A stretch of 64,000 nt of DNA from Desulfovibrionaceae bacterium (GTDB taxonomy: Bacteria > Desulfobacterota > Desulfovibrionia > Desulfovibrionales > Desulfovibrionaceae). The notes under the pieces were generated by a model that did no database searches, had not been told where the DNA came from, and saw only the letters and a program-made list of their open reading frames with translations. The DNA lies in NCBI GenBank assembly GCA_015709205.1, contig JACCQO010000006.1, positions 94,422 through 158,421 on the forward strand, read 5' to 3'. A program made the position numbers and the translations under genes. How positions within the stretch are numbered: the first letter of the stretch is position 1; each line of letters begins with the position of its first letter. Positions 15,542-31,777 of this stretch are shown here, in pieces.

Positions 15542-16870
15542 TTAGTATTCCCCTTCCGGATCGATGCCGAACTTCTCCCACTGCGCGGCCGCGGTGGCCT
15601 CGGCCCTCTCCAGTTCCTCGCCCTCCAGCGGGTCGATGACCAGGGCCTCGGCCACCAGCTGCCAGATGTACTTCACCTCGTAATTGAGGCCCTCGTAGAA
15701 CTTGGGCAGCCGCTTCATGATCTGGTCGCGGCAGTTGGAGCAGCCGACCACGACCACGTCCGCGCCCGTGCGCCGGATCTGGTCCACCTTGAAGCGGCCG
15801 TGGTAGGCGGCCTGCTCCTCGAAGGGCATGGGCCACATGCCGCCGCCCGCGCCGCAGCAGTAGTTGGCCTCGCGGTTGGGGGTCATCTCCACGAAGTCGT
15901 CCACGCACTGGTTGATGATCCAGCGCGGCTCGTCGAAGAAGGCGTCGCCGAAGTGCTTGAGCAGTTCGCGGCCGTGTTTGCAGGAGTCGTGCCACGTGAA
16001 GGTCTTGCCCGCGTGCACGGACTTGTCCAGCTTGATGCGCCCCTCGCTGATGATCTCGCGCAGGTATTCGTAGAGATAGATGAAGTTGATCTGGTTCTCC
16101 GGGTTCTCGGAGAAGCAGCGCTTCAGGCCGGTGCGGCAGCCGTAGGACCCGCCGCCGCAGTCGGGCATGATCATGCGCTTGATCTTCTTTTCCTTCACGT
16201 AGTTGATCTTGCGCATGGCCAGCTCGCGCGAGCCGTCGTAGTTGCCGGAGAACAGCGCCCAGTCCACGGCCTCCCAGCCCTCGCTGGGCACGGTCCACTT
16301 GGAGCGCGCGGCGTAGAAGACCTTCCACCACCAGAACTGGTCCTCGTAGTCGCCGTAGACCTCCTTGGAATTGGGGAAGAAGAGGATGTCCGCGTTCTCC
16401 ACGTCCACGGGCACGTAGAACCCCGGGCACTCCTCCTCGGCCAGCTCCACGCCCAGCTCGGCCATGCCCTGGAGGTAGTCCTCCCTGGCGATGGCCAGGT
16501 TGTTGCCGGTGAGCAGGTTGTTCATGGCCCCCTTGTGCAGGGTGCCGGGCACGGCCTCGCGGTCGCGCAGGTGCTTCATGTGCGCGAGGATGGGCACGAT
16601 GTCGATGCCCATGGGGCAGGACAGGGTGCAGCGGCCGCAGCCCGTGCACAGCCAGGGAAAGTTGGATTTGACGACCTCGTCCACCATGCCCAGGGTGAGC
16701 ATGCGCAGGACCTTGCGGGTGTTCCATTCCTCGTTGCCGGGCGCGCCCGAGGAGGGGCAGCCTGCGGAGCAGCTGCCGCAGGACATGCACCGGCTCAGGT
16801 CCAGCTTGGCCAGGTGGGCGCGGATTTCCGAGGGCAGCTCCCGCGGGGTGACCACCTCTAAGGCTTCCAT
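15542..16870 (-). CDS. HdrD/DsrK-like iron-sulfur oxidoreductase
   Basis: ATG 16870 follows AAGGAG; the protein is 442 residues. Two ferredoxin-type [4Fe-4S] motifs come first (CMSCGSCSAGCP about 28-39, CTGCGRCTLSCP about 75-86), with later cysteines in a CCG-type region. A partly degenerate first copy is MPDCGGGSYGCRTG, and a good second copy is WHDSC, NYCCGAGGG and VVGCSNCRDQ. The build matches the HdrD/DsrK group, which handles disulfide or sulfur chemistry at a noncubane cluster. No membrane helix is evident. It is the last gene of the hdr cluster, separated from usp by 112 bases. It may dock to the Hdr complex as an electron output, though its real partner is unknown. Confidence 0.85.
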   Translation of the reverse strand: MEALEVVTPRELPSEIRAHLAKLDLSRCMSCGSCSAGCPSSGAPGNEEWNTRKVLRMLTLGMVDEVVKSNFPWLCTGCGRCTLSCPMGIDIVPILAHMKHLRDREAVPGTLHKGAMNNLLTGNNLAIAREDYLQGMAELGVELAEEECPGFYVPVDVENADILFFPNSKEVYGDYEDQFWWWKVFYAARSKWTVPSEGWEAVDWALFSGNYDGSRELAMRKINYVKEKKIKRMIMPDCGGGSYGCRTGLKRCFSENPENQINFIYLYEYLREIISEGRIKLDKSVHAGKTFTWHDSCKHGRELLKHFGDAFFDEPRWIINQCVDDFVEMTPNREANYCCGAGGGMWPMPFEEQAAYHGRFKVDQIRRTGADVVVVGCSNCRDQIMKRLPKFYEGLNYEVKYIWQLVAEALVIDPLEGEELERAEATAAAQWEKFGIDPEGEY

Positions 16871-16982
16871 GGCCGACTCCTTTGCGCCGCCTGGGCCCGG
16901 GCCGGGATGCGGCCCGGGCGCGGCGCGGTATGCGCGCGGTAGGCGCGCGGTCGGGGGCGCGGCCGGGCCGCGCCCCGTGCGG

Positions 16983-17915
16983 CTACGCCGGTGCGTGTTC
17001 CCTGGTGTCCACCACATCGCCGGACTGGTCGTACATCAGGCCGCAGCGCAGGTCGAAGTGGCGGTTGATGCTCATGGTCGGGCACAGGGAGTTGAGCGAG
17101 ACCTGGGCCACGGTGGAGCCCAGGAAGGCCTCCTCGGGGTCGGTGTCCTTGCTGTGGTGGGCCATGAGGATCAGGTCCACCCGCTCCATGCGCGCGATCT
17201 TGAGGATCTCCATGGACGGGCGGCCCTCCCAGCACTCGTAGGTGAGGTTCTCCATGCCCGCCAGCCGCGCGCCGTACTCCTCGACCATGCGCTGCTTGCA
17301 GTCGGCGATGCGCCGCGTGATCTCCTCCTGTCCCAGGTCGCTCGCGTCCAGGGCGTGGAAGAGGATCATCCGCGCCTTGTACTGCCGGGCGAGCTGCGCG
17401 CCGTACTGCACGGCGCACTCGGCCTGCTCGGAAAAGTCCGTGGCGCAGAGGATGGTGTCGAACTTCTGCTCGCCGTAGGGCGCGTCGCGGGTGACGATCA
17501 TCACCGGGCAACGGGCCTTGCGGCTGACGCGTTCCAGGGTGCTGCCGGCCATGCCCCACATCTTGGAGCGCTTCTCGGCGTACTCCTTGGTGTGCGGGCC
17601 CATGATGATCAGGTCCGCGTTGACCTTGCGCGCCACGCGCAGGATCTCGTTGTGCGGCATGCCGGGGACCACGTGGATGCCGTAGTCCGCGAGGCCCTTG
17701 AGCTTCTCGCTGTAGAACGTGCGGATGTTCTCCTTGATGCGTTCGGTCTCGCCGCTGGCCTCCAGATGGCGCACCTGGCCCCATCCCTGTTCCATGCCGG
17801 TCACGTGCAGGATGGTCAGCTTGGCCTCGAAACGCTGGGCAAAGGCGAAGGCCTTGTCGGCCGCGCATTCGCAGACTTCGGACGGGGTGACCGCGAGAAC
17901 GATGTCCTTAAACAT
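16983..17915 (-). CDS. Tandem universal stress protein (two UspA domains)
   Basis: This 310-residue protein has two UspA domains, about 1-145 (start MFKDIVLAVTPSE, then DLIIMGPHTKEYAEKRSKMW) and about 152-290 (FDTILCATDFSEQAECAVQY, DLILMAHHSK). Both keep parts of the ATP-binding signature: GMAGSTLERV in the first and FLGSTVAQVSL in the second (G-S-T). The ribosome site is GGAGG. The gene lies inside the hdr operon, 33 bases after hdrB and before the dsrK-like gene. Usp proteins bind nucleotides and modulate stress responses. Being embedded in an electron-transfer operon suggests it responds to energy state for that complex, which is inference. Confidence 0.9.
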   Translation of the reverse strand: MFKDIVLAVTPSEVCECAADKAFAFAQRFEAKLTILHVTGMEQGWGQVRHLEASGETERIKENIRTFYSEKLKGLADYGIHVVPGMPHNEILRVARKVNADLIIMGPHTKEYAEKRSKMWGMAGSTLERVSRKARCPVMIVTRDAPYGEQKFDTILCATDFSEQAECAVQYGAQLARQYKARMILFHALDASDLGQEEITRRIADCKQRMVEEYGARLAGMENLTYECWEGRPSMEILKIARMERVDLILMAHHSKDTDPEEAFLGSTVAQVSLNSLCPTMSINRHFDLRCGLMYDQSGDVVDTREHAPA

Positions 17916-17948: not shown

Positions 17949-18896
17949 TTACGCGGGCTCGGTTTCGGGCTCCGCTTGGGGCTCGGCTTGCGGCGCGTCG
18001 GCAAAGCGCCGGGCCACCTTGTCGCGGAAGCGGCGCGTGAGCTCCATGTTGCGCGCGAGCAGCAGCGCCTCCTCGTCCAGGCCGAAGGCCAGCCCCATGA
18101 GCTGCGGCAGGTAGGCCACGGCCACGCGCTCGCCGCCGCCCACGGCGGCCAGGGCCTCGGACTGGTAGGCCTCCAGGTTCATCTGGCACATGGGGCAGAC
18201 CGTGACGATGACGTCCGCGCCCTGGGCGTCGAGCAGGATGCGGCCCGTGGAGCGCAGGGCGACCTCCTTCTTGGTGGCCATGAGCGAGGCCCCGCAGCAG
18301 CGCGCGCCCGAGGACCACGCGTAGGTCTCGGCCCCCAGGGCCTCGATGAGCGGCTCCATGGAGCGCGGGTGCTCGGGGTCGTCGAACTTGGGGTAGGGCC
18401 GGAGGATCTGGCAGCCGTAGTAGGGCGCGACCACCAGGCCCTTGAGCGGAGCGATGACGGCCTCGCGCACCGCGTCCGCGCCCACGTCGTTGACCAGCAC
18501 GTCGAGCAGGTGGCGCACCCGCGCCGCGCCGGACCAGTGCATGTCCTCCACGGCCAGGACCTCGTTGATGTTTCCGGCCAGGGCGCGGTCGCGCCCGGCC
18601 TCCTCGCCCACGCGCAGCAGGTTCAGGTAGCAGGCCGCGCAGGGCACGAGCACGTCCGGCACCCGGGCATCGCGCCCGGCCGAGGCCGCGGCGCGCTCCA
18701 CCAGGGCCAGGTTGCGCGCGGGCAGGGTGTAGGTCAGCAGGCGGCTCACGGACTCCACGGCGCTCGCGCCGCAGCAGGTCCAGTCCTCGATCTCCTCGAC
18801 CTGCGCGCCCAGGTCGGCCATGACCAGCCGGGTGGACGCGTCGTACTCGCGCGCGCTCTCGGTGAGCGAACAGCCGGGGTAGTAGGCGTACTTCAT
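17949..18896 (-). CDS. hdrB: Heterodisulfide reductase subunit B-like protein
   Basis: The 315-residue protein starts at ATG 18896, which overlaps the hdrC stop by four bases. Two CCG domains are clear. The first has YYPGCSLTESAREYD (C9), WTCCGAS (about 40-44) and VPCAACYLN. The second has YYGCQILRP, ARCCGASLM and TVCPMCQMN. Such paired motifs bind the two noncubane [4Fe-4S] clusters that reduce disulfides in HdrB. The C-terminal 40 residues end in a Pro/Glu/Ala-rich tail. It is the expected catalytic subunit of the complex encoded here. The substrate in a bacterium is not known; a thiol/disulfide carrier or protein disulfide is likely. Confidence 0.92.
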   Translation of the reverse strand: MKYAYYPGCSLTESAREYDASTRLVMADLGAQVEEIEDWTCCGASAVESVSRLLTYTLPARNLALVERAAASAGRDARVPDVLVPCAACYLNLLRVGEEAGRDRALAGNINEVLAVEDMHWSGAARVRHLLDVLVNDVGADAVREAVIAPLKGLVVAPYYGCQILRPYPKFDDPEHPRSMEPLIEALGAETYAWSSGARCCGASLMATKKEVALRSTGRILLDAQGADVIVTVCPMCQMNLEAYQSEALAAVGGGERVAVAYLPQLMGLAFGLDEEALLLARNMELTRRFRDKVARRFADAPQAEPQAEPETEPA

Positions 18897-19525
18897 GGCT
18901 TTTCCTCCATTTCCCTGACCTTTGCGAAGAGCGGGCCCAACCGGCCGCGCTGCGGGGATCCGTGCAGCCCGGCCTTGCCCTTGGCCAGCATGCGCAGCCC
19001 CAGGGGCATGAACGAGAAGGGCGCCAGGGGGTCGCGCAGGGCCACGAAGTAGTGGGCCATGAGGTCGGTCTCGTTGACGCGGCCCAGGCGCCGCACGTTG
19101 TCCACGAAGGTCGCGTAGAAGGCCCCGTGCCTGCGCTGGCCTGGCCCGCCGCGCAGGATGGAGGCGCGCTTGAGCGCGGCCATGGCCCGGGTCAGCGGCA
19201 GCCCGCGCGGGCAGCGCAGGGTGCAGCCGTAGCACGAGGAACAGAGGTAGAAGGTCTTGGAGTCCATGACCTCGTCGGCGTAGCCGTGCAGCAGCAGCCG
19301 CCACATCCGGCGCGGGGTCAGGTCCATGGCGAACTGGTTGGGGCACGAGGCCGAGCAGGTGCCGCACTGCATGCACCCGGCGACCATGTGCCGGACCTCG
19401 TCCAGGGCCGCCTCGAGGGCCTGGGCGCGAGGATCGGGCGCGGGGGCCGGGGCGGCCGCCGGTGCCCGGGGGGCCTCGGGAGCCTTGGCCGTTGCGGCGT
19501 CGGCGTGTTCGGTTGCGGGAGCCAT
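18893..19525 (-). CDS. hdrC: Heterodisulfide reductase subunit C-like ferredoxin protein
   Basis: The 210-residue protein has two [4Fe-4S] motifs, CMQCGTCSASCPNQ (about 51-64) and CSSCYGCTLRCPRG (about 95-108). A helical C-terminal part resembles HdrC. The first 40 residues are an Ala/Pro linker (APEAPRAPAAAPAPAPDP), unusual for HdrC and probably unstructured. GAAGGAG precedes the start. HdrC normally wires HdrA to HdrB, and its stop codon overlaps the hdrB start, so 1:1 synthesis is expected. Confidence 0.92.
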   Translation of the reverse strand: MAPATEHADAATAKAPEAPRAPAAAPAPAPDPRAQALEAALDEVRHMVAGCMQCGTCSASCPNQFAMDLTPRRMWRLLLHGYADEVMDSKTFYLCSSCYGCTLRCPRGLPLTRAMAALKRASILRGGPGQRRHGAFYATFVDNVRRLGRVNETDLMAHYFVALRDPLAPFSFMPLGLRMLAKGKAGLHGSPQRGRLGPLFAKVREMEEKP

Positions 19526-19540: not shown

Positions 19541-22500
19541 TTACGCGGGGTCTTCGGTTGGGCCCGTGTCGGCGGCGTCCGGGGCCGCGGTCGCGGGTTC
19601 GGGGTCGCTTTCGGGCGTGGCGGCCGCCGGGGCCGGGGCCGTGCGCGGCGTGGGCAGGTTGCCCAGGGCCGCGTCGATGACGCTCATGACCTGCACGTCC
19701 GTGAAGCCGCGCAGGACGGAAGCGCCGTTGGGGCAGGCCGCGGCGCAGGAGCCGCAGCCCTGGCAGAGCAGTTCGTCGACCACGATGCGGTCGCGGTCCA
19801 GGTCCAGGCTGCGCGCGCCGTAGGGGCAGACGTCGATGCACCGGCCGCAGCGCGAGCACAGGGAGTCGCGCACCTCGGCGACCACCGAGCCGCAGACCAG
19901 CCGCTTTTCCGAGAGCACGCGCACGGCGCGCTGGGCCGCGGCCTTGGCCGAGGCCACGGTCTCGCCCATGGAGCCCGGCGCGCGCGCCAGGCCGCAGACG
20001 AACACGCCCTGCTTGAGGAAGTCCACGGGCCGCCACTTGTAGTCGGCCTCCTGGAAGAACCCGTTGGCGTCCAGGTGCACGCCGAAGATCTCGGCCAGCT
20101 CCCAGTTCTCGTTGGGCTCGATGCCCGTGGACAGGGCCAGGAGGTCCGCATGCACGCGGATGGGCGCGGCCAGCACCGGGTCGTAGGCCGTGATCACCGG
20201 CCTGCCGTCCTCGAATTCCACCTGCGGCCGGTTCTCCGGCGAATAGCGCACGAAGATGGCCCCGGCCTCGCGGGCCTTGGTGTAGTACTGCTCGGAGAAG
20301 CCGTAGCTCATGATGTCGCGGTAGAAGACGTAGACCGGCAGGTCCGGGGCGCGCTCCTTGAGCAGGAGCAGGTTCTTGAGCATCCCGGCGCAGCAGACCC
20401 GGCTGCAGTAGTTGCGGTGTTCGTCGCGCGAGCGCCAGCACTGCATCATGGCCACGCCCGACAGCGCCGAGGCGTCGATCTCGCCCGAAGCCAGCCGCTG
20501 TTCCAGTTCCAGCTGGGTGAGCACGGACTTGTGCACCCGGAAGCCGTAGTCGTAGATGCGCGATTCGTGGCCGCCGGTGGCCAGCACCGTGACCCCGTGT
20601 TCCACCGGGGCCGAGCCCTCGTCCAGGGACACGACCGAGAAGAAGCGCCCGGCGCGGCCCATGGACAGGGCCACGCGCGCGTCGGTGTGCACGGTGATGT
20701 TCGGGTGCCGCGTGACCTGGCCCACCAGGTCCTCCATGAAGCGCACGGGATCCTGGCCGGAGAGGGTGCGGCGCAGCTTCATGGCCGTGCCGCCCAGGTG
20801 CTCGGCCTCCTCCACCAGGGTCACGGGGTAGCCGTGGTCCGCGATGGCCATGGCCGCGGTCATGCCCGCGAGGCCGCCGCCGACCACCAGGGCCGCGCGG
20901 GTGACCTCCTGGGGCTCGGGCAGGGGCGAGGGGTCCGCGCCCATGAGGCGCATCAGGGACATGTGCACGCGGGTGAAGACGTCCTCCTCGGCGCGTTCCC
21001 GGACGGCGGCGTCCGTGGGGTGCTTGGTGCTCATGGCGCCCATGACCAGGGAGTGCACGTCGACCACGTCCATGAGCGCGGGGTTCAGGCCGATGGCCGC
21101 GCCCAGTTCGCGCAACCGCGGCACGTAGGCGTAGGGCATGCACGCGCCGATGAGGATGCGGTTGGGCTCCAGTTCGGCGGCCGCCTCGGCCACGGCCTTC
21201 CAGCCTTCGCCCGTGCAGGCGTTGTCAACGCGCATGACCCGGACCACGGACTCCACGCCCTCCAGGCGGCGGGCCAGGTCGTCCACGTCCAGGGCGCGGT
21301 CCAGGGTCGGGCAGGAGGAGCACAGGGCCGCCAGGATGCGCGGCTGCTCGCGGGAGACGTCGCGGTAGCGCGGTTCGGGCTCGGGCCCGCGGTCCTTGAT
21401 GGGCGCGAAGAGGTTGACCAGGCGCGAGGCGTTGCAGGCCGCGGCCCCGGACTGGATGACCGATTCCGCGATGTCGCGCGGCTGGCCGAAGGCCCCGCCC
21501 GCGAACACGCCCACGCGGCTGGTGCGCGCGGGTTCGAAGTAGTCCGTGGCGCAGAAGCCCCACTCGTTGGTCTCGATCCCCGCGGCGCGGGCCAGCCGCT
21601 GCATGGCCTTGGGCGGCCGAGCGCCCACGGCAAGCACGAGCATGTCGAAGGTCTCGGTGGTGATCCTGCCCGCGTCGTCCACGTACTGCACGCGCAGCGC
21701 GGCCGGATCGTCGGGGTCGGGCAGCACGGTGTGCAGCCGCGCGGGCACGAAGCGCACGCCGTTGGACTCGGCCGTGTCGCGGTAGGACTGGTACTCCTTC
21801 CCGAACACGCGCATGTCCATGTAGAAGACCGTGCACTCGGCCGGACCGCCCTTGCGCCCGAAGGTGCGCTTGCGCGCCAGGTTGGCCTCCTTGAGCGAGA
21901 TCATGCAGCAGACCGAGGAACAGTAGTCGGCCTTCTTCTGCAGGTCGCGCGAGCCCACGCACTGCAGCCAGGCGATGCGCTTGAGCTCCTGGCCGTCGTG
22001 ACGGGCGAGCCGCCCGCCGGACGGTCCCGTCGACGAGCACATCCGCTCGAATTCCAGGGAGGTGACCACGCCCGGCAGGCGGCCGTAGCCCAGGGTCTGG
22101 CCCGCGCCGTGCAGCGGGTCGCCCGGGTCGTAGCAGTCGAACCCGGCGGCCAGCACCACGGCGGCCACGTCCACCTCGATGCGCTCCTCGCTGACCAGGC
22201 GCATGTAGAGCTTGTCCAGCCAGGGCACCAGGGTCGCGGGGTTCAGGGGGCCCACCACGTAGTCGCGCGCACCGAGGTCCACCAGGGCGCGGGCCTCGTG
22301 CTCGCGCTCGGGCGGGCAGGAGGCCACCACGGGCAGGGTGGGCCGGATCTCCTGGGCGCGCTCCAGCAGCCGCTCGGCGTCCGGATCGTCGATGCGCACG
22401 TCGATGACCAGCAGGCGGATGGTCTCGTCCTTGGCCAGGGTGTCCAGGGCTTCCTGGCCGGTCTTGGCGTGGAGGAAGGGGAAGTTCTGGTGCTTGAACC

Positions 22501-23119
22501 ACCCGGCCAGGCGTTCGGCCGCGTCGGGCCGGGGGCTGGCCACCAGGATGCGGAAGTCCTTGCGCTCGCTGAAGCGGAAGTCGATGGCCCGGGTCGGGCA
22601 GGCGTCGTGGCACTGCCAGCAGCGCTCGCAGGAATCCAGGTCCACCACGTAGTGGTTGGGGATGGCGTGGGGCACGGGCAGGTGCACGGCGGTGCGCTGC
22701 GTGAGCCCGGCGTTGAATTCGTGCGGCACGCTCACCGGGCAGGCCTCGGCGCACAGGCCGCAGCCGATGCACTTTTCCGGATCCACGAAGCTGGACTGCC
22801 TGGAGAGCACGGCCTTGAAGGTGCCGGGCTCGCCGGAAAGCTCCAGCAGATCGGTGTGCAGCAGGATGTCGATGTTCTTGTGGAAGAGCCCCTTGCGCAT
22901 GCAGAACTGGCTGGAGGAATCGCGCTCGGTCAGGGGCAGCATCTTGCACATGCCGCAGTGGTCGTTGGGGAACTGGTAGTCGAGCTGGGCCAGGAGCCCG
23001 CCGATGTGCGGGCGGGTGTCCGTGAGGACCACCTTGCGGCCCGTCTCGGCCAGGTCCAGGGCGGCGCGAATGCCGCCGATGCCGGCTCCCACCACCAGGG
23101 CGTCGTAACTCTTGTTCAT
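19541..23119 (-). CDS. Giant HdrA-like protein: two fused HdrA units with an inserted receiver-like domain
   Basis: At 1192 residues this is nearly double a normal HdrA. Unit 1 (1-590) has an FAD site VVGAGIGG (9-16), CGMC (55-58) and two [4Fe-4S] motifs (C117-C127, C164-C174). Residues about 188-305 then fold by pattern as a CheY-like receiver: ILVASPRPDA, RLLVIDVRI with D240, S267, and YVVGPLNP. Acidic pocket residues (now S195/P196) and the lysine (G290) are lost. The FAD domain resumes at VAAVVLAAGFDCYDP. Unit 2 starts with an HdrA N-terminal-like segment (LCSSCPTLD, ACTGEGW, IGACMPY), then a second FAD site VVGGGLAG (745-752), and ends in two ferredoxin motifs (C1088-C1098, C1119-C1129). 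It should carry two flavins and at least four clusters. Confidence 0.9.
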   Translation of the reverse strand: MNKSYDALVVGAGIGGIRAALDLAETGRKVVLTDTRPHIGGLLAQLDYQFPNDHCGMCKMLPLTERDSSSQFCMRKGLFHKNIDILLHTDLLELSGEPGTFKAVLSRQSSFVDPEKCIGCGLCAEACPVSVPHEFNAGLTQRTAVHLPVPHAIPNHYVVDLDSCERCWQCHDACPTRAIDFRFSERKDFRILVASPRPDAAERLAGWFKHQNFPFLHAKTGQEALDTLAKDETIRLLVIDVRIDDPDAERLLERAQEIRPTLPVVASCPPEREHEARALVDLGARDYVVGPLNPATLVPWLDKLYMRLVSEERIEVDVAAVVLAAGFDCYDPGDPLHGAGQTLGYGRLPGVVTSLEFERMCSSTGPSGGRLARHDGQELKRIAWLQCVGSRDLQKKADYCSSVCCMISLKEANLARKRTFGRKGGPAECTVFYMDMRVFGKEYQSYRDTAESNGVRFVPARLHTVLPDPDDPAALRVQYVDDAGRITTETFDMLVLAVGARPPKAMQRLARAAGIETNEWGFCATDYFEPARTSRVGVFAGGAFGQPRDIAESVIQSGAAACNASRLVNLFAPIKDRGPEPEPRYRDVSREQPRILAALCSSCPTLDRALDVDDLARRLEGVESVVRVMRVDNACTGEGWKAVAEAAAELEPNRILIGACMPYAYVPRLRELGAAIGLNPALMDVVDVHSLVMGAMSTKHPTDAAVRERAEEDVFTRVHMSLMRLMGADPSPLPEPQEVTRAALVVGGGLAGMTAAMAIADHGYPVTLVEEAEHLGGTAMKLRRTLSGQDPVRFMEDLVGQVTRHPNITVHTDARVALSMGRAGRFFSVVSLDEGSAPVEHGVTVLATGGHESRIYDYGFRVHKSVLTQLELEQRLASGEIDASALSGVAMMQCWRSRDEHRNYCSRVCCAGMLKNLLLLKERAPDLPVYVFYRDIMSYGFSEQYYTKAREAGAIFVRYSPENRPQVEFEDGRPVITAYDPVLAAPIRVHADLLALSTGIEPNENWELAEIFGVHLDANGFFQEADYKWRPVDFLKQGVFVCGLARAPGSMGETVASAKAAAQRAVRVLSEKRLVCGSVVAEVRDSLCSRCGRCIDVCPYGARSLDLDRDRIVVDELLCQGCGSCAAACPNGASVLRGFTDVQVMSVIDAALGNLPTPRTAPAPAAATPESDPEPATAAPDAADTGPTEDPA

Positions 23120-23159: not shown

Positions 23160-24323
23160 TCAGTCCGTTCCGCCCGTGACCTCGGCGAACTCCTTCTCCC
23201 GGAACACGGTCAGCGGCGGGGCCTCCTCGGCGTTGCGGCCCGCCTCGTAGCCGAAGGCCCGCTGGGTGCGGTCGCCCACCAGGCGGAAGAGCTCCATGAC
23301 CGGCACTCCGTTGGGGCAGGCGTTGGAACACTGGCCGCAGCCCACGCACGAAAGGGACATGTGCGAAAGGCGCGTGAGGTGGAAGAAGAGGGTGTCCGTG
23401 GGCATGCGCAACTGGCCGTTCTTGCGCGCCCAGCCCATGTACTGCCAGGGCTTGTGGTCGAAGACGTCGGTGAGGAAGACGCACTCCTTGCAGTAGCAGA
23501 CCGGGCAGGCCGCGCGACAGTTGTAGCAGCTGATGCAGTTGGAGAGGTAAGCGCCCAGCTTGCCCAGGCTTTCGGTGGCCGTGGCGGTCTCGGCGAACAT
23601 GGTGTCGCGGTACTCGCTGCGCGCGGCGATCAGCTCTTCCAGCGCGCTTTCGCGTGCCTGGGCGTGGGCCGGATCGGTATCGGAAAGGGCCAGCCGGTTG
23701 AGCAGCCCCTCGCCGCGCGGCGTGTTGGCCGTGATCAGCAGCCGCTGGCCCGTGTCCACGCCGAAGAGCCCGATGTTCAGGTCCGCGCCGCCGGCTGCCG
23801 GGTGCTCGCAGGCCTTGCAGGCGCGGGCCAGGGTGTAGCCCTCGCCGTCGGTGAGTCCCTTGGAGGCCGCGGCCAGGAAGGCCAGGGTGGCTTCGTCGGG
23901 AGCGCGCGAGGCGATGAACCGGGGGTAGTCGGCGTTGGGATAGGCCCCGTAGCAGTCGAAGCCGATGAGAATGACGTTGTCCATGGCCCCCTGGTTGAGC
24001 TTGACCAGTTCGGTGAAGGCGCGCACCTCGCAGGGGCGCAGCACCGCCGCCAGGCTTCCTTCGCCCTCGCCGCGCGTCAGGCGGGAGACGAGCCGGGCCG
24101 CGTTCAGGGGAAAGGACGGGGCCAGGGGGTCGGTGGTCTCCAGCAGGGCGGGGTCCGTGACCAGGGTGGGCATGACCGCGCCCTGGGGGCCGCCGTTGGC
24201 CGAGAGATGCTTGCCCGCGAGCACGCCGCCGGCCAGCCCCTCGGTGAGCAGGCGCGCCAGGAATTCGCGCAGGGCCTTGGTCGGGTTCGCGTCCCGGACT
24301 TCCAGGCTGACTGTGGTCGCCAT
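23160..24323 (-). CDS. FrhB/FdhB-like beta subunit (flavin and Fe-S electron input module)
   Basis: This 387-residue protein starts after GGAGGAAG. The N-terminal two thirds match the FrhB/FdhB family fold (AAVLRPCEVRAFTELVKLNQ then GAMDNVILIGFDCYGAYP). The clustered cysteines CISCYNCRAACPVCYCKECV (about 261-280) and a ferredoxin motif CVGCGQCSNACPNG (about 325-338) follow. In methanogens this subunit binds FAD and oxidises or reduces F420; in formate dehydrogenases it links to the catalytic subunit. Sulfate reducers are not known for F420 dependence, so NAD(P)H, ferredoxin or a formate dehydrogenase partner is more likely. No catalytic formate dehydrogenase or hydrogenase is encoded nearby. 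The gene sits between mvhD and the giant hdrA with gaps of 36-40 bases. Confidence 0.87.
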   Translation of the reverse strand: MATTVSLEVRDANPTKALREFLARLLTEGLAGGVLAGKHLSANGGPQGAVMPTLVTDPALLETTDPLAPSFPLNAARLVSRLTRGEGEGSLAAVLRPCEVRAFTELVKLNQGAMDNVILIGFDCYGAYPNADYPRFIASRAPDEATLAFLAAASKGLTDGEGYTLARACKACEHPAAGGADLNIGLFGVDTGQRLLITANTPRGEGLLNRLALSDTDPAHAQARESALEELIAARSEYRDTMFAETATATESLGKLGAYLSNCISCYNCRAACPVCYCKECVFLTDVFDHKPWQYMGWARKNGQLRMPTDTLFFHLTRLSHMSLSCVGCGQCSNACPNGVPVMELFRLVGDRTQRAFGYEAGRNAEEAPPLTVFREKEFAEVTGGTD

Positions 24324-24359: not shown

Positions 24360-24782
24360 TCAGATGACCATCATCCGGCTCGTTTCGCCGGGCCCCAGCT
24401 CGCGGATGTCCTCCACCAGCTCGTTGACCGTCTCCGCGAACTCGTTGCCCTCGCTCGCGCCCACCCAGGTGAGCTTCACGCGGCGTTCGTCCACGCCGAA
24501 GCCCGTGAGGATCTCCTTGAGGAGCTTGACGCGGCGGCGCGCCTTGTAGTTGCCGTTGATGTAGTGGCAGTCGCCCGGGTGGCAGCCGCTGATGAGCACG
24601 GCGTCCGCCCCGCCGAGCAGGGCCTTGAGCACGTACTTGGGATCGACCATGCCCGTGCACATCATGCGCACCAGGCGCACGTTGGGCGACTGGATCATGC
24701 GCGCGGTGCCCGCCAGGTCGGCGGCCGTGTACGTGCACCAGTTGCAGACGAAGGCCACGATGGTCGGTTCGAAGCGTTCCAT
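24360..24782 (-). CDS. mvhD: MvhD-like [2Fe-2S] electron-transfer subunit
   Basis: The 140-residue protein has the standard MvhD length and cysteines: FVCNWCTYTAAD (C13, C16), MMCTGMV and SGCHPGDCHY. MvhD carries a [2Fe-2S] cluster and passes electrons into the FAD of HdrA. No in-frame TGA is present, so this copy uses cysteine where some relatives use selenocysteine. It follows the first hdrA by 31 bases and precedes the FrhB-like gene. This is the order expected if electrons enter by FrhB, cross MvhD and reach HdrA. Confidence 0.93.
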   Translation of the reverse strand: MERFEPTIVAFVCNWCTYTAADLAGTARMIQSPNVRLVRMMCTGMVDPKYVLKALLGGADAVLISGCHPGDCHYINGNYKARRRVKLLKEILTGFGVDERRVKLTWVGASEGNEFAETVNELVEDIRELGPGETSRMMVI

Positions 24783-24813: not shown

Positions 24814-26868
24814 TCAGGCCTGGGCCTCGGCCGTCTCGGTTTCCTCGGCGCCGTTCGCGGCTCCGGCGGTCCCGGGTTCCGGTTCGGTCACCGGAATGCG
24901 CACCGGCGCGAGCAGGCCGTCCAGTTCGGCGAAGATCTCCTTTTCCGTGAAGTGGCGGATCTGGGCCGCGCCGCTGGGGCAGGCCCCGGCGCAGGAGCCG
25001 CAGCCCTTGCACATGGCCTCGTTGACCACGCTCACGCCCCGGCGCGCGTCGAACTCGATGGCCGAGTAGGCGCACAGGCCGATGCAGGTCTTGCAGCCGA
25101 TGCACACGTCCGGGTCGATGTGCGAGACCGTGGGCGAGATGGTCACCTTGCCGCGCGCGGCCAGGGCCAGGGCCTGGGCCGCCGCGCCCGCGGCGTGGGC
25201 CACGGCGTCGGGAATGTCCTTGGGCCCCTGGCAGGTCCCGGCCAGGAAGATGCCGTCCGTGGCCGTGGACACGGGGCCGAGCTTGGGGTGCTCCTCCAGG
25301 AAGAAGCCGTCGAGTCCCTGGCTGATGCCGAAGACGCGGGCCACCTCGGCCACGTCCGCGCGGGGCTCCATGGCCGTGCAGAGCACGACCATGTCCACGG
25401 GCACGCGGATCGTGCGGGCCAGCAGGGTGTCCTCGCCGATGACAATGAGCTTGCCTTCCTCCTCCGGGGTCAGCGCCTGGTCCGTGACCTCGGCGGGGCG
25501 GCCCCGGATGAAGGTCACGCCCTCCTCCTGCACGCGGCGCAGGAACTCCTCGTAGCCCTTCCCGAAGCAGCGCAGGTCGATGTAGAAATTGTAGACCCTG
25601 GTGGCGTGGCCGACCTTGTCCTTGATCAGGTGGTCGTACTTGAGCGCGTACATGCAGCACACGCGCGAACAGTACTCGTGATGGTTCACGTCGCGGCTGC
25701 CCACGCAGTGGATGATGGCCACGGACTCGGGCTTTTGGCCGTTCTTCATCACGATCTTGCCGCCCGTGGGGCCCACGGCGTTGTTCAGCCGTTCGAACTG
25801 CAGCCCGGTGTAGACCTCGGGGAAGCGGCCGAAGCCGTACTGGCCCAGGGGGGTGGGGTCGAGGGTGTCGAAGCCCGTGGCCAGCACGATGGTCCCGATG
25901 TCCAGCTCCACCTCGCGTTCCCGCTGCTCGAAGTCGATGGCCCCGGAGGGACAGAACTTGGCGCACACGCCGCACTTCTTGCCGTTGAGCACGCGGCAGG
26001 CCGAGGCGTCGATGACCGGCTTGTTGGGCACGGCCTGGGGCGAGTTGCGGTGGATGGCGCGGCGCTGGGCGAGGCCCTCCTCGAATTCGCTGTCCACTTT
26101 GGTCGGGCATTTCTCCAGGCACAGCCCGCAGCCCGTGCACTTGTCCATGTCCACGTAGCGGGGCTTGAGGCGCACCGTGGCCTTGTAGTTGCCCACGAAC
26201 CCGCTGACCTCCTTGACCTCGGCCCAGGTCATCAGGTTGATGTTCGGCTCCTGGGACACGGCGACCATCTTGGGCGTGGAGATGCAGGCCGCGCAGTCCA
26301 GGGTGGGAAAGGTCTTGTCGAACTGGGCCATGTGCCCGCCGATGGAGGGCGAGCGCTCCACAAGGTGCACGCGGTGGCCCGAGCGGGAGATGTCCAGGGC
26401 GGCCTGGATGCCCGCGATGCCCGCGCCGACCACGAGCACGTCCGGGTGCACGTTCTCTTCGCGCGAGTAGAGTTCCTCGTGCCAGTTGACGCGGTCCACG
26501 GCCGCGGCCACAAGGCGCATGGCCTTGGCCGTGGCCTCTACCGGGTCCGGATGCACCCACGAACAGTGCTCGCGGATGCAGGTCATCTGGAAGAGGAAGG
26601 GATTGAGCCCGGCGCGCAGCACGGCGTTCTGGAAGGTCTTCTCGTGCAGCCGCGGCGAGCAGGAGGCCACCACCACCCGGTTGAGCCCGAGCTGGCGGAT
26701 GTCGTTGATGATCATGTCCTGCCCGGGGTCCGAGCACATGAACTTGTAGTCGCGGCCCACGACCACGCCGCGCAGCCGCTGTGCGAACTCGGCCACCTTG
26801 GGGGAGTCCACCCTGGGGTAGATGTTCGATCCGCAGTGGCATACGTACACGCCGATTCGGTTGGCCAT
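24814..26868 (-). CDS. hdrA: Heterodisulfide reductase subunit A-like flavoprotein (canonical)
   Basis: ATG 26868 after AAGGAG gives 684 residues, a normal HdrA size. Residues 1-135 form the N-terminal domain (GVYVCHCGSNI, VVASCSPRLHEKTF). The FAD site VVGAGIAG is at 146-153, with DCAACISTPKM about 191-201. Ferredoxin motifs are CTGCGLCLEKCP (about 234-245) and KKCGVCAKFCP (about 288-298), followed by HdrA motifs HCVGSRDVN, EYCSRVCCMYALK and C-terminal CIGCKTCIGLC and CKGCGSCAGACPSG. HdrA carries the bifurcating FAD in methanogen complexes. The last 25 residues are Glu/Ala-rich. It is first in the operon, just downstream of the divergent regulatory region. With the giant HdrA, the operon supplies three HdrA flavin sites. 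Confidence 0.93.
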   Translation of the reverse strand: MANRIGVYVCHCGSNIYPRVDSPKVAEFAQRLRGVVVGRDYKFMCSDPGQDMIINDIRQLGLNRVVVASCSPRLHEKTFQNAVLRAGLNPFLFQMTCIREHCSWVHPDPVEATAKAMRLVAAAVDRVNWHEELYSREENVHPDVLVVGAGIAGIQAALDISRSGHRVHLVERSPSIGGHMAQFDKTFPTLDCAACISTPKMVAVSQEPNINLMTWAEVKEVSGFVGNYKATVRLKPRYVDMDKCTGCGLCLEKCPTKVDSEFEEGLAQRRAIHRNSPQAVPNKPVIDASACRVLNGKKCGVCAKFCPSGAIDFEQREREVELDIGTIVLATGFDTLDPTPLGQYGFGRFPEVYTGLQFERLNNAVGPTGGKIVMKNGQKPESVAIIHCVGSRDVNHHEYCSRVCCMYALKYDHLIKDKVGHATRVYNFYIDLRCFGKGYEEFLRRVQEEGVTFIRGRPAEVTDQALTPEEEGKLIVIGEDTLLARTIRVPVDMVVLCTAMEPRADVAEVARVFGISQGLDGFFLEEHPKLGPVSTATDGIFLAGTCQGPKDIPDAVAHAAGAAAQALALAARGKVTISPTVSHIDPDVCIGCKTCIGLCAYSAIEFDARRGVSVVNEAMCKGCGSCAGACPSGAAQIRHFTEKEIFAELDGLLAPVRIPVTEPEPGTAGAANGAEETETAEAQA

Positions 26869-26965
26869 GGGGCGCTCCTTTGGCTTGGGACGGGTTCCGT
26901 TCTCTCGCATCCCAAAGACCAAGAAGCGTACCGGCTTTTATAATCCCTTTTTTCCCGATTGGTTA

Positions 26966-27103: not shown

Positions 27104-27331
27104 GAGCGTGATTTTCCGCTGCCGGGCCGGGCTGCCGGACCTTGCGCGAACGTCTCGGAAAACGGGACGCGCCGGGCCCCGGCCCGCGCGGCGCGCGTCT
27201 TGGAAAAGTGGAAGCAGAGAAAAACGATACGGTTGCGCGGGGAATGGGGGCGTGGTACAGTCGCCCAAAAAACGGCCGCCGCCTCGCCGTGGGCGGGTGC
27301 GGTTTCGGTCGCGTGCGCAGGCGGTGTCTCC

Positions 27332-29314
27332 ATGGAGACCATCTTCAAGGAACTGTTCAGCGCCACCACGGACCTCGCCCTGCTCGTGGATCGCCAGGGA
27401 GTGATCCTGGCCAGCAATCCGGCCATGGCCCGGCGGCTGCGCCTGACGCCCGACGAACTGTTGGGCGAGAACATCTTCGACTTTTTTCCCCTGGAACACG
27501 CCCTGCGCCGCAAGCGCTACCTGGACCTCGTGCTGGAGACGGCCCAGACCGTGACCTTCGAGGAACTGTCGCACCTGGGCGGGGTGCTCGAGGTGCGGCT
27601 TACGCCCGTGTCCTCGGAGTCCGGCCAGGTGCGTTCCGTGGTCGTGCTCGCGCGCGACATCACCGAGCGCAAGCAGGCCGAGGAGGAGCGCATCCGGCTG
27701 GTCACGGCCATCGAGCAGGCCGCCGAGGCGATCATCATTCTGGAGAGCGACTTCAGCATCGCCTTCATCAACCAGACCTTCGAGGCCATGACCGGCTATT
27801 CCCAGAGCGAGATCCGCGGGCAGTCCATCGCCGCGCTCTACCAGGGCGCCAACCAGCAGCGCCAGTTCCGCATGCTCGTGGAAACCCTGGAGGCCGGGGA
27901 CGTGTGGACCGGCCGCTCCTACAATACGCGCAAGGATGGCACGGTCTTCCAGTGCGAGAAGACCGTCTCGCCCATCCGCGGCCAGCGCGGCGTGGCCCTG
28001 GGCTACGTCAGCCTCTGGCGCGACGTGACCGACACGGCCGAGTTGGAGCGCCAGCTGCGCACGGCTCAGAAGATGGAGGCCATCGGCACCCTGGCCGGGG
28101 GCATCGCCCACGACTTCAACAACGTGCTCGCGCCGATCATGCTCCACGCCGAGCTCGGCCTGGAGGCCCTGGACGAGGACCATCCGGTGCGCGCCTCGTT
28201 CGCCGAGATCCTCGCGGCGGCCGAGCGCGCCTCGGCCCTGGTGGAGCAGATCCTCAACCTTGGCCGCCGCCGCGAGGGCGACGAGCCCGTGCCCTTCCGC
28301 CTCTCCAGCATCGTGCGCGAGTGCGTCAAGCTGCTGCGGCCCTCGCTGCCCGCGACCATCCGCATCGACTTTCAGGACGCCAGCGGCGACGGGCTGATCC
28401 TGGCCGACCCCACTCAGGCCCACCAGGTGGTCATGAACCTGTGTACCAACGCGGCCCACGCCATGCGCAACAAGGGCGGGGTGCTCGGGCTATCGGTGGC
28501 CGAGCGCGACGTGCGCGACGAGGACTTTCCGGCCTATCCGGAACTGGTCTCGGGCCGCTACGTGGAGTTGGCCGTTTCGGACACCGGCACGGGCATGACC
28601 CCGGAATTCATCGAAAAGATCTTCGACCCCTTCTTCACCACCAAGCGCAACGGCTCGGGCTCCGGCCTGGGGCTGGCCGTGGTGCGCAACATCGTCACCT
28701 GGCAGGGCGGGGCCGTGCGCGTGCAGAGCGAGCCCGGCGCGGGCAGCACCTTCCGCGTGTTTCTGCCCCTGGCCCCGGAATGGGTCGGGGCCGAGGGCGA
28801 GGGCGCTGTGCGGCGCGAACGGCCCACGGGCACGGAATGCGTGCTCCTGGCCGACGACGACCGCGCGCTCACGGCCTCGGTGCGCATGGCCCTGGAGAGC
28901 CTGGGCTACCACGTGACCGTGGCCCGCGACGGCGACGAGGCCCTGGAGCGCTTCCGCCAGTCGCCCGAGGGCTTCGACCTGGTGCTGGCGGACGTGACCA
29001 TGCCGGGCATGACCGGCGTGGACCTGGCGCGCGAGCTGCTGCGCGAGCGGCCGGACCTGGCCGTGGTCCTGACCTCGGGCTACACGGAACTGACCTCGCC
29101 CGAGGAGGCGCGCTCCCTGGGGGTCCGCTCCTTTCTCAAGAAACCGTGCTCCATCGACGAACTGGCGCGCGTCGTGCGCGACGCCCTGGACGCGCGGCAC
29201 GGATCGGGCGCGTCCAACGGGCCCGCCGGAGCTTCCGGGGCCGGGAGGGGGGCGGGGCCCGCAGGGACCGGGGGCTCTGCGGGGCCGCCCGCGCCGCGCG
29301 GCGGCGGGGCATAG
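27332..29314 (+). CDS. Cytoplasmic hybrid histidine kinase (PAS-PAS-HisKA-HATPase-receiver)
   Basis: METIFKELFS at 27332 is the best start (660 residues); longer forms add an unconserved tail. There is no membrane helix. PAS domains lie at about 6-115 and 124-235, and phospho-accepting H260 is in GGIAHDFNNV. The ATPase domain contains DTGTGMTPEFIEKIFDPFFT and GSGLGLAVV. A C-terminal receiver (about 505-625) has LLADDDRA, LVLADVTMPG and the lysine in FLKKPCSI. The HDFNNVLAP motif places it in the NtrB/hybrid group. The tail is Gly/Ala-rich. It is divergent from the hdr operon and nine bases ahead of a sigma54 activator gene. It should sense an intracellular cue, perhaps redox, and control that operon. 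Confidence 0.93.
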   Translation: METIFKELFSATTDLALLVDRQGVILASNPAMARRLRLTPDELLGENIFDFFPLEHALRRKRYLDLVLETAQTVTFEELSHLGGVLEVRLTPVSSESGQVRSVVVLARDITERKQAEEERIRLVTAIEQAAEAIIILESDFSIAFINQTFEAMTGYSQSEIRGQSIAALYQGANQQRQFRMLVETLEAGDVWTGRSYNTRKDGTVFQCEKTVSPIRGQRGVALGYVSLWRDVTDTAELERQLRTAQKMEAIGTLAGGIAHDFNNVLAPIMLHAELGLEALDEDHPVRASFAEILAAAERASALVEQILNLGRRREGDEPVPFRLSSIVRECVKLLRPSLPATIRIDFQDASGDGLILADPTQAHQVVMNLCTNAAHAMRNKGGVLGLSVAERDVRDEDFPAYPELVSGRYVELAVSDTGTGMTPEFIEKIFDPFFTTKRNGSGSGLGLAVVRNIVTWQGGAVRVQSEPGAGSTFRVFLPLAPEWVGAEGEGAVRRERPTGTECVLLADDDRALTASVRMALESLGYHVTVARDGDEALERFRQSPEGFDLVLADVTMPGMTGVDLARELLRERPDLAVVLTSGYTELTSPEEARSLGVRSFLKKPCSIDELARVVRDALDARHGSGASNGPAGASGAGRGAGPAGTGGSAGPPAPRGGGA

Positions 29315-31013: not shown

Positions 31014-31454
31014 CTAGATCGGGCGGATGGTCAACACCGGAATCGGCGAGGTCTTGACCACCTTTTCCGCCACCGATCCGAAAAGAATGCGGTCCACGCC
31101 CTTGCGGCCGTGCGTGCCCAGGATGATGAGCTGCGCGCCCTCGGCCTTGGCCGTCTCGATGATGCCCTCCGGAGCGTAGCCCTTCTTGACCTTGCCCTTG
31201 GCCTCCACGTCCTGGAAATGCTCGTCCAGGCAGGCCTTCATCTTCTCCTTGGCCCCGTGGGCGATGGAGCGCACCACGCATTCGATGTCGCCCTGGGAGA
31301 CATAGAGCTGGGCGTACTGGTTGAGCTTGGGGGCCACGTAGACGAGGACCACGTTGGCGCCCGTGAGCTTGGCCAGGTAGGCCGCGTGCTTGGCCACCAC
31401 GGGGGTCATCTCCGAGAAGTCGACGCCACAGAGAATGGTGCGGATGGGGATCAT
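31014..31454 (-). CDS. Universal stress protein (single UspA domain)
   Basis: ATG 31454 behind GGAGGAG gives 146 residues, a standard single-domain Usp. Motifs are ILCGVDFSEM at the N-terminus and the ATP-binding LIILGTHGRKGVDRILFGSV followed by AEKVVKTSPIPVLTI, with intact G-2X-G-9X-G-S type spacing. Longer in-frame extensions are Arg/Ser-rich and are rejected. The gene is convergent with the sigma54 activator gene, with about 130 bases between their stops. Role: cytoplasmic, ATP-binding, stress or energy-state response. Confidence 0.92.
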   Translation of the reverse strand: MIPIRTILCGVDFSEMTPVVAKHAAYLAKLTGANVVLVYVAPKLNQYAQLYVSQGDIECVVRSIAHGAKEKMKACLDEHFQDVEAKGKVKKGYAPEGIIETAKAEGAQLIILGTHGRKGVDRILFGSVAEKVVKTSPIPVLTIRPI

Positions 31455-31777
31455 GAGCTCCTCCTGCTGGTTGTGCGTTCCGGCTGAGGCCGGAGGCACG
31501 AGGGCCGCCCCGACGGCGATCGGCCTCTTCCCGTACCCGGTTGGGAATTCGCAAGGAGTGTGCCGATGCGAAATCGGCAAACCGTTTTGCAATGCGATGA
31601 AATAATGGCATAAAAAATCCGCTTTTTCGGACTGCGTTGGCCGGGGGTGTCGGTTTTTGTGACACTTCGTCCATTCGCCGGACACGGCTTCGACCGCGCG
31701 GGCCCCTGGGAAATCGTTTGAGCCCGGCGGGCGAATGCAGTATGAAGTCCGGTGGACGCAACAGCCCCAAAGGACCC
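31455..31777. promoter_or_regulatory. Divergent regulatory region between usp and the sensor-MFS gene
   Basis: This 323-base region contains an AT-rich core (about 31565-31630), a GCAAA/TTTGC dyad at 31577-31590 and GTGTC-N9-GACAC at 31647-31665. Both dyads could be regulator sites. No confident -35/-10 pair can be chosen. Confidence 0.4.

What the first reader, a model, noticed from the sequence alone, without database searches (positions are those of the whole stretch)
19541..23119. Giant HdrA: two fused HdrA units with a receiver-like domain inserted in the first
The 1192-residue protein has two FAD signatures (residues 9-16 and 745-752) and an internal HdrA N-terminal-like segment (about 595-700). 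A segment at about 188-305 follows the CheY receiver pattern (DNA about 22205-22558). That segment keeps the central aspartate (D240) but has lost the acidic pair and the lysine, so it is probably a pseudo-receiver that binds a partner or nucleotide rather than phosphate. A signalling fold inside an electron-bifurcating flavoprotein suggests direct allosteric control of electron flow. Tandem or giant HdrA proteins exist in other anaerobes (for example Bam and Hdr-Flox type complexes), but I do not know of one described with this insertion.
Basis: partly seen in the sequence, partly recalled or inferred. Interest (0 to 1): 0.9.

Follow-up and report, generated by a model that had tools for sequence, protein, structure and literature searches.

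The report
Signalling receiver inside an electron-bifurcating HdrA
A large electron-splitting enzyme subunit of a sulfate-reducing bacterium carries a two-component signalling domain in its middle; here that domain has lost its phosphorylation residues, but in most relatives outside this order it is complete and often sits beside sensor kinases, so a cell-signalling switch may be wired into the enzyme itself.

Summary
The 1192-aa protein is two fused HdrA units with a receiver domain of about 118 residues between the inserted ferredoxin domain and the rest of the first flavin domain, where methanogen HdrA has three residues. AlphaFold gives a (βα)5 fold that matches solved receivers. The window's copy keeps one of five receiver hallmark residues (D240), so it is a pseudo-receiver. 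In a 60-row tree receiver-bearing tandem HdrA form one clade, apart from receiver-less, selenocysteine-type tandem HdrA. Outside the window's order the receiver is canonical: all five residues in 58 of 59 sequences, and more conserved than the enzyme around it. There a histidine kinase follows on the same strand within 4.5 kb in 20 of 33 loci, against 0 of 15 in the window's order. One lineage has the receiver also in a stress-protein gene of the same cluster. Best reading: HdrA became a phosphorylation-controlled output protein, and the window's lineage has lost phospho-control but kept the fold. That phosphorylation changes electron flow is inferred, not shown. No described receiver-HdrA turned up in the open-access text searched. 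New variant of a known kind.

The parts
19541..23119 (-). giant tandem HdrA with inserted pseudo-receiver, 1192 aa
22787..23119 (-). unit 1, first part of the thioredoxin-reductase-like FAD domain (res 1-111); C55 and C58 align with C194 and C197 of 5odc (counted by hand on the alignment)
22574..22786 (-). inserted ferredoxin domain of unit 1 (res 112-182), two 4Fe-4S Cys motifs
22205..22558 (-). pseudo-receiver (res 188-305), (ba)5 fold; D240 kept, S195/P196, C268 and G290 replace DD, T and K
21407..22189 (-). unit 1, second part of the FAD domain (res 311-571), with C387, C400, C404, C405
20939..21349 (-). HdrA N-terminal-like domain of unit 2 (res 591-727); C600, C635, C660 invariant in the 44-row alignment
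19913..20893 (-). unit 2 FAD domain (res 743-1069); no inserted ferredoxin and no Cys in the place of Cys197 (read from the sequence)
19709..19879 (-). C-terminal ferredoxin domain of unit 2 (res 1081-1137)
18893..19525 (-). HdrC-like gene
   Evidence: Fer4_8, Fer4_17
17949..18896 (-). HdrB-like gene, two CCG stretches
16983..17915 (-). tandem Usp gene; in a few relatives the Usp gene of the cluster carries a like receiver between its two Usp domains
15542..17017 (-). HdrD-like gene (4Fe-4S + CCG)
23160..24323 (-). FrhB/FdhB-like flavin and Fe-S subunit
   Evidence: PF04432 E 9.1e-7, 29.3 bits, cut-off 23.3
24360..24782 (-). MvhD (FlpD family)
24814..26868 (-). second, ordinary-size HdrA; start chosen by eye at MANRIGV, ORF runs to 26922
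27200..29314 (+). divergent hybrid histidine kinase (PAS-PAS-HisKA-HATPase-receiver), 704 aa
29324..30886 (+). sigma-54-type response regulator, 520 aa

Best explanation
The protein is the HdrA subunit of a soluble Hdr complex in which a receiver domain, most like those of sigma-54 (NtrC-type) response regulators, was inserted at the exit of the inserted ferredoxin domain, probably once. In relatives outside the window's order (which I take to be Desulfovibrionales) the receiver is complete, and I infer that histidine kinases encoded beside it phosphorylate it. Phosphorylation would move its a4-b5-a5 face, and a5 runs straight into the strand that re-enters the flavin domain, so it would gate electron passage between the bifurcating FAD and the inserted ferredoxin clusters. 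In Desulfovibrionales, including the window, phospho-control was lost: the domain keeps its fold and core and works, if at all, as a phosphorylation-independent docking or structural module, while the kinase next door lies beside a sigma-54 regulator. Shown by computation: insertion, fold, clade, intact versus degenerate hallmarks, gene neighbourhood. Inferred: phosphotransfer, gating, bifurcation by this complex, and any role of the window's copy.
For: Clean insertion: 5odc residues 145-311 and 315-500 align to query 6-182 and 312-505. Fold. One clade: 50 receiver-bearing of 60 rows on one side, SH-aLRT 100, receiver columns left out. Hallmarks: all five in 58 of 59 unique sequences outside the order, in 0 of 43 unique ones inside; after clustering at 90% identity 51 of 52 and 0 of 36. 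Of 25 loci fetched by other routes 10 have receivers not in the first set: the 8 from outside the order are intact and the 2 from the window's family degenerate, by my reading of the printed alignment. Conservation: among 31 intact sequences the receiver exceeds unit 1 (69.7 versus 63.4% identity, 423 of 465 pairs); among 16 degenerate ones it is far below (38.3 versus 66.1%, 0 of 120 pairs). Histidine kinase on the same strand within 4.5 kb downstream in 20 of 33 intact loci, 0 of 15 degenerate (20 of 31 and 0 of 15 after 90% clustering), against about 3% expected per locus from 15.1 HATPase domains per Mb in 7 genomes. In L106, L107 and L111 the kinase frame begins 77, 4 and 62 bases after the last hdrA codon, stop included. 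A like receiver lies between two Usp domains in the same cluster in 5 loci. Degenerate copies keep 19 of 25 core positions that I picked by eye at 95% hydrophobic or more.
Against: No biochemistry: neither phosphotransfer nor an effect on electron flow has been shown. The intact/degenerate groups were drawn after seeing the alignment, and the kinase contrast rests on one split of the tree, so the Fisher p of 6e-5 is not phylogenetically independent. 13 of 33 intact loci have no kinase found in that stretch (4 of the 33 have one there on the other strand), and one intact sequence (L099) has Gly for the phospho-Asp. Kinases were found with a home-made HMM of five seeds, all from intact loci. The link to sigma-54 receivers rests on 132 columns and SH-aLRT 89-90. 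[quoted passage not shown] Six of the 25 core positions picked are not hydrophobic (0.00 to 0.76).
Confidence: 0.6

Rival explanations
1. The receiver is a docking or localisation module: it tethers the Hdr complex to a kinase, the Usp proteins or other receivers without changing catalysis.
For: A like receiver occurs between two Usp domains of a neighbouring gene in 5 loci, two of them with identical receivers, which suggests a shared binding partner. In the window's order the fold persists without the phosphorylation residues.
Against: All five hallmark residues are kept in 58 of 59 intact sequences; pure docking would not need them.
Confidence: 0.2
2. Information runs the other way: HdrA is the sensor. 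Its redox state changes how the receiver takes or drains phosphate, and so reports electron flow to the kinase and the sigma-54 regulator.
For: Kinases lie in or beside many clusters and sigma-54 regulators beside some, and several in-cluster kinases have an N-terminal receiver of their own.
Against: Receivers normally act on the protein they are part of (general knowledge). The clusters also hold other receivers better suited as relay parts.
Confidence: 0.15
3. In the window's lineage the domain is a relic: a tolerated folded spacer with no function left.
For: It changes about 2.2 times faster than the HdrA around it (median of 92 pairs that differ by 1-15% in HdrA) and members keep 0 to 4 of 5 hallmarks.
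Against: The 65 places of the order scan show no stop inside it (the profile included the receiver, so copies without one would be missed), and most core positions are nearly fixed. 37 of 43 keep the Lys and 17 of 43 the Asp.
Confidence: 0.25

Closest known systems
HdrA of methanogen HdrABC complexes (5odc, 7bkb, 8rvu)
   Same: FAD domain, inserted ferredoxin, N- and C-terminal cluster domains; best structural matches of the full model
   Different: Two units in one chain with complementary domain loss, and a receiver where 5odc has residues 312-314
Fused HdrA3/HdrA4 of ANME archaea and the HdrA of Moorella MetFV-HdrABC (PMC9012536, passages)
   Same: Two HdrA units in one chain; the N-terminal domain in one unit and the Cys197 ligand in the other
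   Different: Order is reversed here against that given for HdrA3/4: Cys197 unit first, N-terminal-domain unit second. 'Receiver' does not occur in that paper's main text. ANME HdrA9-11 have an NfnB-like insert in the ferredoxin domain instead
Receiver-less, selenocysteine-type tandem HdrA of the same order
   Same: Nearest outgroup used, co-linear over both units, 34-41% identical over the part after the insert
   Different: No receiver (6-8 residues in its place in 10 of 10), and an in-frame TGA at the Cys197 position in 8 of 8 inspected
Response regulators with enzymatic outputs, including REC with thioredoxin reductase (PMC5847659, section 14 and passages)
   Same: A receiver joined to a thioredoxin reductase or another metabolic enzyme is known
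   Different: None of the fusions named in the parts read is an HdrA or an electron-bifurcating subunit
D. autotrophicum locus VIII, hdrL-hdrA4-hdrCB with fdhB (PMC2702500, passages)
   Same: Same kind of gene set; the Fig. 4 legend lists a CheY-like regulator, a response regulator and a histidine kinase among neighbours of its hdr loci
   Different: No receiver inside HdrA is mentioned in the passages read. I could not test the HdrA4 sequence itself

Membership tests
HdrA (bifurcating subunit) | FAD motif, inserted 2x[4Fe-4S] domain, Cys-rich cluster motif, N- and C-terminal cluster domains | tested here: met
   All present, spread over two units
HdrA (NCBIfam equivalog/exception models) | Score over the curated cut-off | tested here: not met
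   NF040770 637.8 of 1100 bits, NF041778 500.9 of 1400, NF041891 470.1 of 1300: HdrA-like, not a member of those defined subfamilies
HdrA (bifurcating subunit) | Flavin-based electron bifurcation activity | not testable with these tools
   needs purified complex
Receiver domain PF00072 | (ba)5 fold | tested here: met
Receiver domain PF00072 | Pfam gathering score | tested here: inconclusive
   Window copy 28.3 of 30.2 bits; two named relatives 103.4 and 111.3 bits
Phosphorylatable receiver | DD, D, T/S, K | tested here: not met
   Window keeps D240 only; met in 58 of 59 intact relatives
Pseudo-receiver (as defined in PMC12632262, passages) | Receiver lacking at least one of the five residues | tested here: met
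   4 of 5 lost
Response regulator of a two-component system | Phosphorylated by a cognate kinase, output changed | not testable with these tools
   only gene neighbourhood and residue conservation support it in relatives
Selenocysteine HdrA | In-frame TGA at the Cys197 position | tested here: not met
   Cys58 in the window; C58 invariant in the 44-row alignment

The most novel reading that the evidence does not exclude
HdrA itself is a response regulator. In many Desulfobacterota, membrane kinases with a c-heme-like periplasmic sensor (CxxCH in 9 of the 10 kinases of 740-800 aa found in these loci) phosphorylate a receiver built into the bifurcating subunit and, in one lineage, a copy of it in the Usp gene of the cluster. 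Periplasmic redox state would thus set within seconds how electrons are split in the cytoplasm. Desulfovibrionales have disconnected this switch and kept a pseudo-receiver.
Probability: 0.4. Interest if true: 0.87.

Novelty: new variant of a known kind. Interest (0 to 1): 0.72.

Why it matters
Electron bifurcation is central to the energy budget of many sulfate reducers and syntrophs, and I know of little on how cells adjust the split. A two-component phosphorylation switch inside the bifurcating subunit would be direct post-translational control of it, testable with purified parts. The natural contrast of intact receivers and pseudo-receivers in otherwise co-linear enzymes also gives a clean case for what a receiver does after it loses phosphorylation.

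Tried and rejected
Assembly or frame artefact: rejected, since co-linear open frames occur in many separate assemblies.

Insert as a normal HdrA segment: rejected. Chance resemblance: rejected by sequence, fold and intact homologues.

dN/dS to ask whether the window's receiver is still selected: synonymous sites are near saturation and GC is high, so the absolute ratios (0.75 receiver, 0.37 HdrA, medians of 772 degenerate pairs) are not trusted; only the relative rate of protein change is used.

First reading of the phylum scan (19 of 395 genomes): 4 of the 19 matched the receiver only and encode sigma-54 regulators, so 15 of 395 is the count of true cases. In the class scan (24 of 55) one hit, G689, spans only 1-171 of 236.

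Independence: 15 of the 25 loci turned out to repeat receivers of the first set (the window's own among them), so only the 10 new ones are used as a check. L135 and L160 have identical Usp receivers, and L135 and L143 identical HdrA receivers, so the five Usp-receiver loci stand for at most four organisms. The VVDDE motif is present in 4 of those 5; L136 did not match it.

Selections made: the tool returned 80 of 182 related loci; L120 (contig ends inside the receiver) was dropped, 79 used. Groups: L061-L080 with L002-L009, L031-L060 and the window (58 rows, 43 unique) versus L081-L140 (59). The order's name is inferred: 14 of the 20 titles of L061-L080 name a taxon that I place in Desulfovibrionales, 6 have wider titles; none of L081-L140 names one. 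Tree: 17 of 58, 33 of 59 and 10 receiver-less rows, chosen by hand for spread; 16 of 58 and 31 of 59; that script stopped with an error after printing these figures and its last part was rerun. A3 holds the window and 43 of the 54 full-length references printed. Kinase counts use only loci with enough flank: downstream 33 of 59 and 15 of 20; upstream 28 and 17 (9 and 11 with a kinase).

Papers: passages only of PMC2702500, PMC5109826, PMC4046663, PMC3739170, PMC10553843, PMC9012536, PMC12350162 and PMC12632262; passages and section 14 of PMC5847659. Other papers were seen as search listings. Appel et al. 2021 on HdrA modules was seen only as a reference.
Full report
Observation. The minus-strand ORF 19541-23119 encodes 1192 residues. 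Two FAD motifs lie at 9-16 and 745-752. Pfam finds Response_reg at 191-298 (E 2.1e-6, 28.3 bits, cut-off 30.2) among many flavin and ferredoxin families. A PDB sequence search hits HdrA chains first and receivers (AdeR) at 185-301 with E 2.4e-5.

Anatomy. Against 5odc HdrA, query 6-182 aligns to 145-311, 312-505 to 315-500, 591-690 to 2-101 and 904-1149 to 398-647. So unit 1 has no N-terminal domain, has the inserted ferredoxin, and holds C58, which aligns with C197 of 5odc. Unit 2 has the N-terminal domain (C600, C635, C660 invariant in the 44-row alignment) and the C-terminal ferredoxin, but no inserted ferredoxin. This is the complementary pattern from which PMC9012536 (passages) proposes that fused HdrA act as their own heterodimer, but in the reverse order. 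The receiver occupies the three-residue junction 312-314 of 5odc. AlphaFold of residues 183-316 gives five alternating strands and helices with pLDDT 86.0 and pTM 0.82; the 50 Foldseek matches listed in PDB are response-regulator or receiver entries, seven of them chains of the fusion entry 6oec. The full-length model (pLDDT 86.3, pTM 0.88) has the same fold in place, with helix 294-310 running straight into strand 311-323 of the flavin domain, and matches methanogen HdrA best.

Distribution. A profile of residues 105-345 finds the arrangement in 63 of 298 genomes of the order. With a wider profile it is in 15 of 395 genomes of the phylum, the other 4 of 19 hits being receiver-only, and in 24 of 55 genomes of one other class, one of these hits partial. 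A scan of named genomes gave 182 related loci, of which 80 were returned, among them Solidesulfovibrio alcoholivorans, Desulfonema magnum, Desulfoferrobacter suflitae and one Latescibacterota MAG.

Intact versus degenerate. In 59 unique sequences outside the order the acidic pair, Thr and Lys are present in 59 and the phospho-Asp in 58. In 43 unique sequences of the order the counts are: first acidic 28 D, second acidic 6 E, Asp 17, Thr/Ser 6, Lys 37; none keeps all five and the window keeps one. After clustering at 90% identity, all five are kept in 51 of 52 and 0 of 36. The two groups were drawn after the alignment was seen. As a check, 10 new receivers reached by other routes split as expected: 8 from outside the order intact, 2 from the window's family degenerate. 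Two named isolates score 103.4 and 111.3 bits for Response_reg. Conservation flips: among 31 intact sequences the receiver is the best conserved of the three parts compared (69.7% against 63.4% for unit 1 and 53.2% for unit 2), among 16 degenerate ones the worst (38.3% against 66.1% and 59.4%). Yet the degenerate copies keep 19 of 25 hand-picked core positions at 95% hydrophobic or more; the other six range from 0.00 to 0.76.

History. On a tree without the receiver columns, receiver-bearing HdrA are one side of a branch (100), those of the window's order one side (99), the others one side (96), and receiver-less tandem HdrA lie outside (100) (SH-aLRT only, quick search, 60 hand-chosen rows). 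The simplest story is one gain and one loss of phospho-control; the outgroup rows all come from this order. In the receiver tree HdrA receivers group together (89) next to sigma-54 regulator receivers (90), some of them from the same clusters. Five receivers found between two Usp domains (98 as a group, two of them identical) lie inside the HdrA receivers on branches of 80-85, not starred, so the cassette was probably copied within the cluster.

Neighbourhood. The common cluster order is HdrA, MvhD, FrhB/FdhB-like, giant HdrA, HdrC, HdrB, with a Usp gene in some loci. Outside the order a histidine kinase lies on the same strand within 4.5 kb downstream in 20 of 33 loci with enough flank (and on the other strand in 4), against 0 of 15 in the order; the order instead has an upstream kinase in 11 of 17 loci, intact loci in 9 of 28. 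In the window this is a 704-aa hybrid kinase and a sigma-54 regulator on the opposite strand. The chance level for one locus is about 3%, from 561 HATPase domains in 37.1 Mb of 7 genomes. In L106, L107 and L111 the kinase frame begins 77, 4 and 62 bases after the last hdrA codon (first possible start codon, stop included). Of 10 kinases of 740-800 aa in these loci 9 have a CxxCH motif near residue 120, followed by CxxxxCH; 8 of these 9 lie downstream on the same strand, L122 downstream on the other, and the tenth (L121, no motif) upstream. The one scanned has HAMP, PAS, HisKA and HATPase domains (L106). Heme binding is inferred.

Mechanism. [quoted passage not shown] Here those domains belong to unit 2, while the ferredoxin that carries the receiver belongs to unit 1. 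A receiver at that joint could change how the inserted ferredoxin meets the shuttle cluster or its external partner. This step is inference, and no solved complex holds a receiver there.

Literature. Searches brought up no paper that, in the listings and passages seen, describes a receiver in HdrA. The library lacks most subscription papers, supplements were not open to me, and domain databases may already list the architecture. REC fused to metabolic enzymes, including thioredoxin reductase, is known (PMC5847659), hence 'new variant of a known kind' rather than categorically new.

Noticed in passing
L011-L013, L016-L020 (receiver-less tandem HdrA): In-frame TGA exactly at the Cys197 position in 8 of 8 inspected, followed by similar DNA that may be a selenocysteine insertion element; the receiver clade has Cys there.
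   Followed up: partly
L113:12570-13991, L121:12668-13981, L135:12680-13990, L136:10836-12149, L160:1054-2376: Usp-receiver-Usp proteins in the cluster (domains confirmed by Pfam for L121); the receivers lie inside the HdrA receivers on the tree, L135 and L160 being identical.
   Followed up: partly
L085:2349-5732 and similar genes in other intact loci: The partner HdrA is about 1120-1150 aa with a GltD/NfnB-like insert (Fer4_20, Pyr_redox_2 in L085), like the HdrL and ANME HdrA9-11 of the literature; the window's partner (24814-26922) lacks it.
   Followed up: partly
L106:5274-7556 and eight like kinases: Sensor kinases with CxxCH and CxxxxCH motifs near residues 120 and 163 of the N-terminal sensor part, perhaps c-heme binding.
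   Followed up: partly
L085:1908-2303 and similar: A stand-alone CheY-like receiver just upstream of the HdrA operon in several intact loci.
   Followed up: no
window 31014-31787 (-): Another Usp gene close to the kinase/regulator pair.
   Followed up: no
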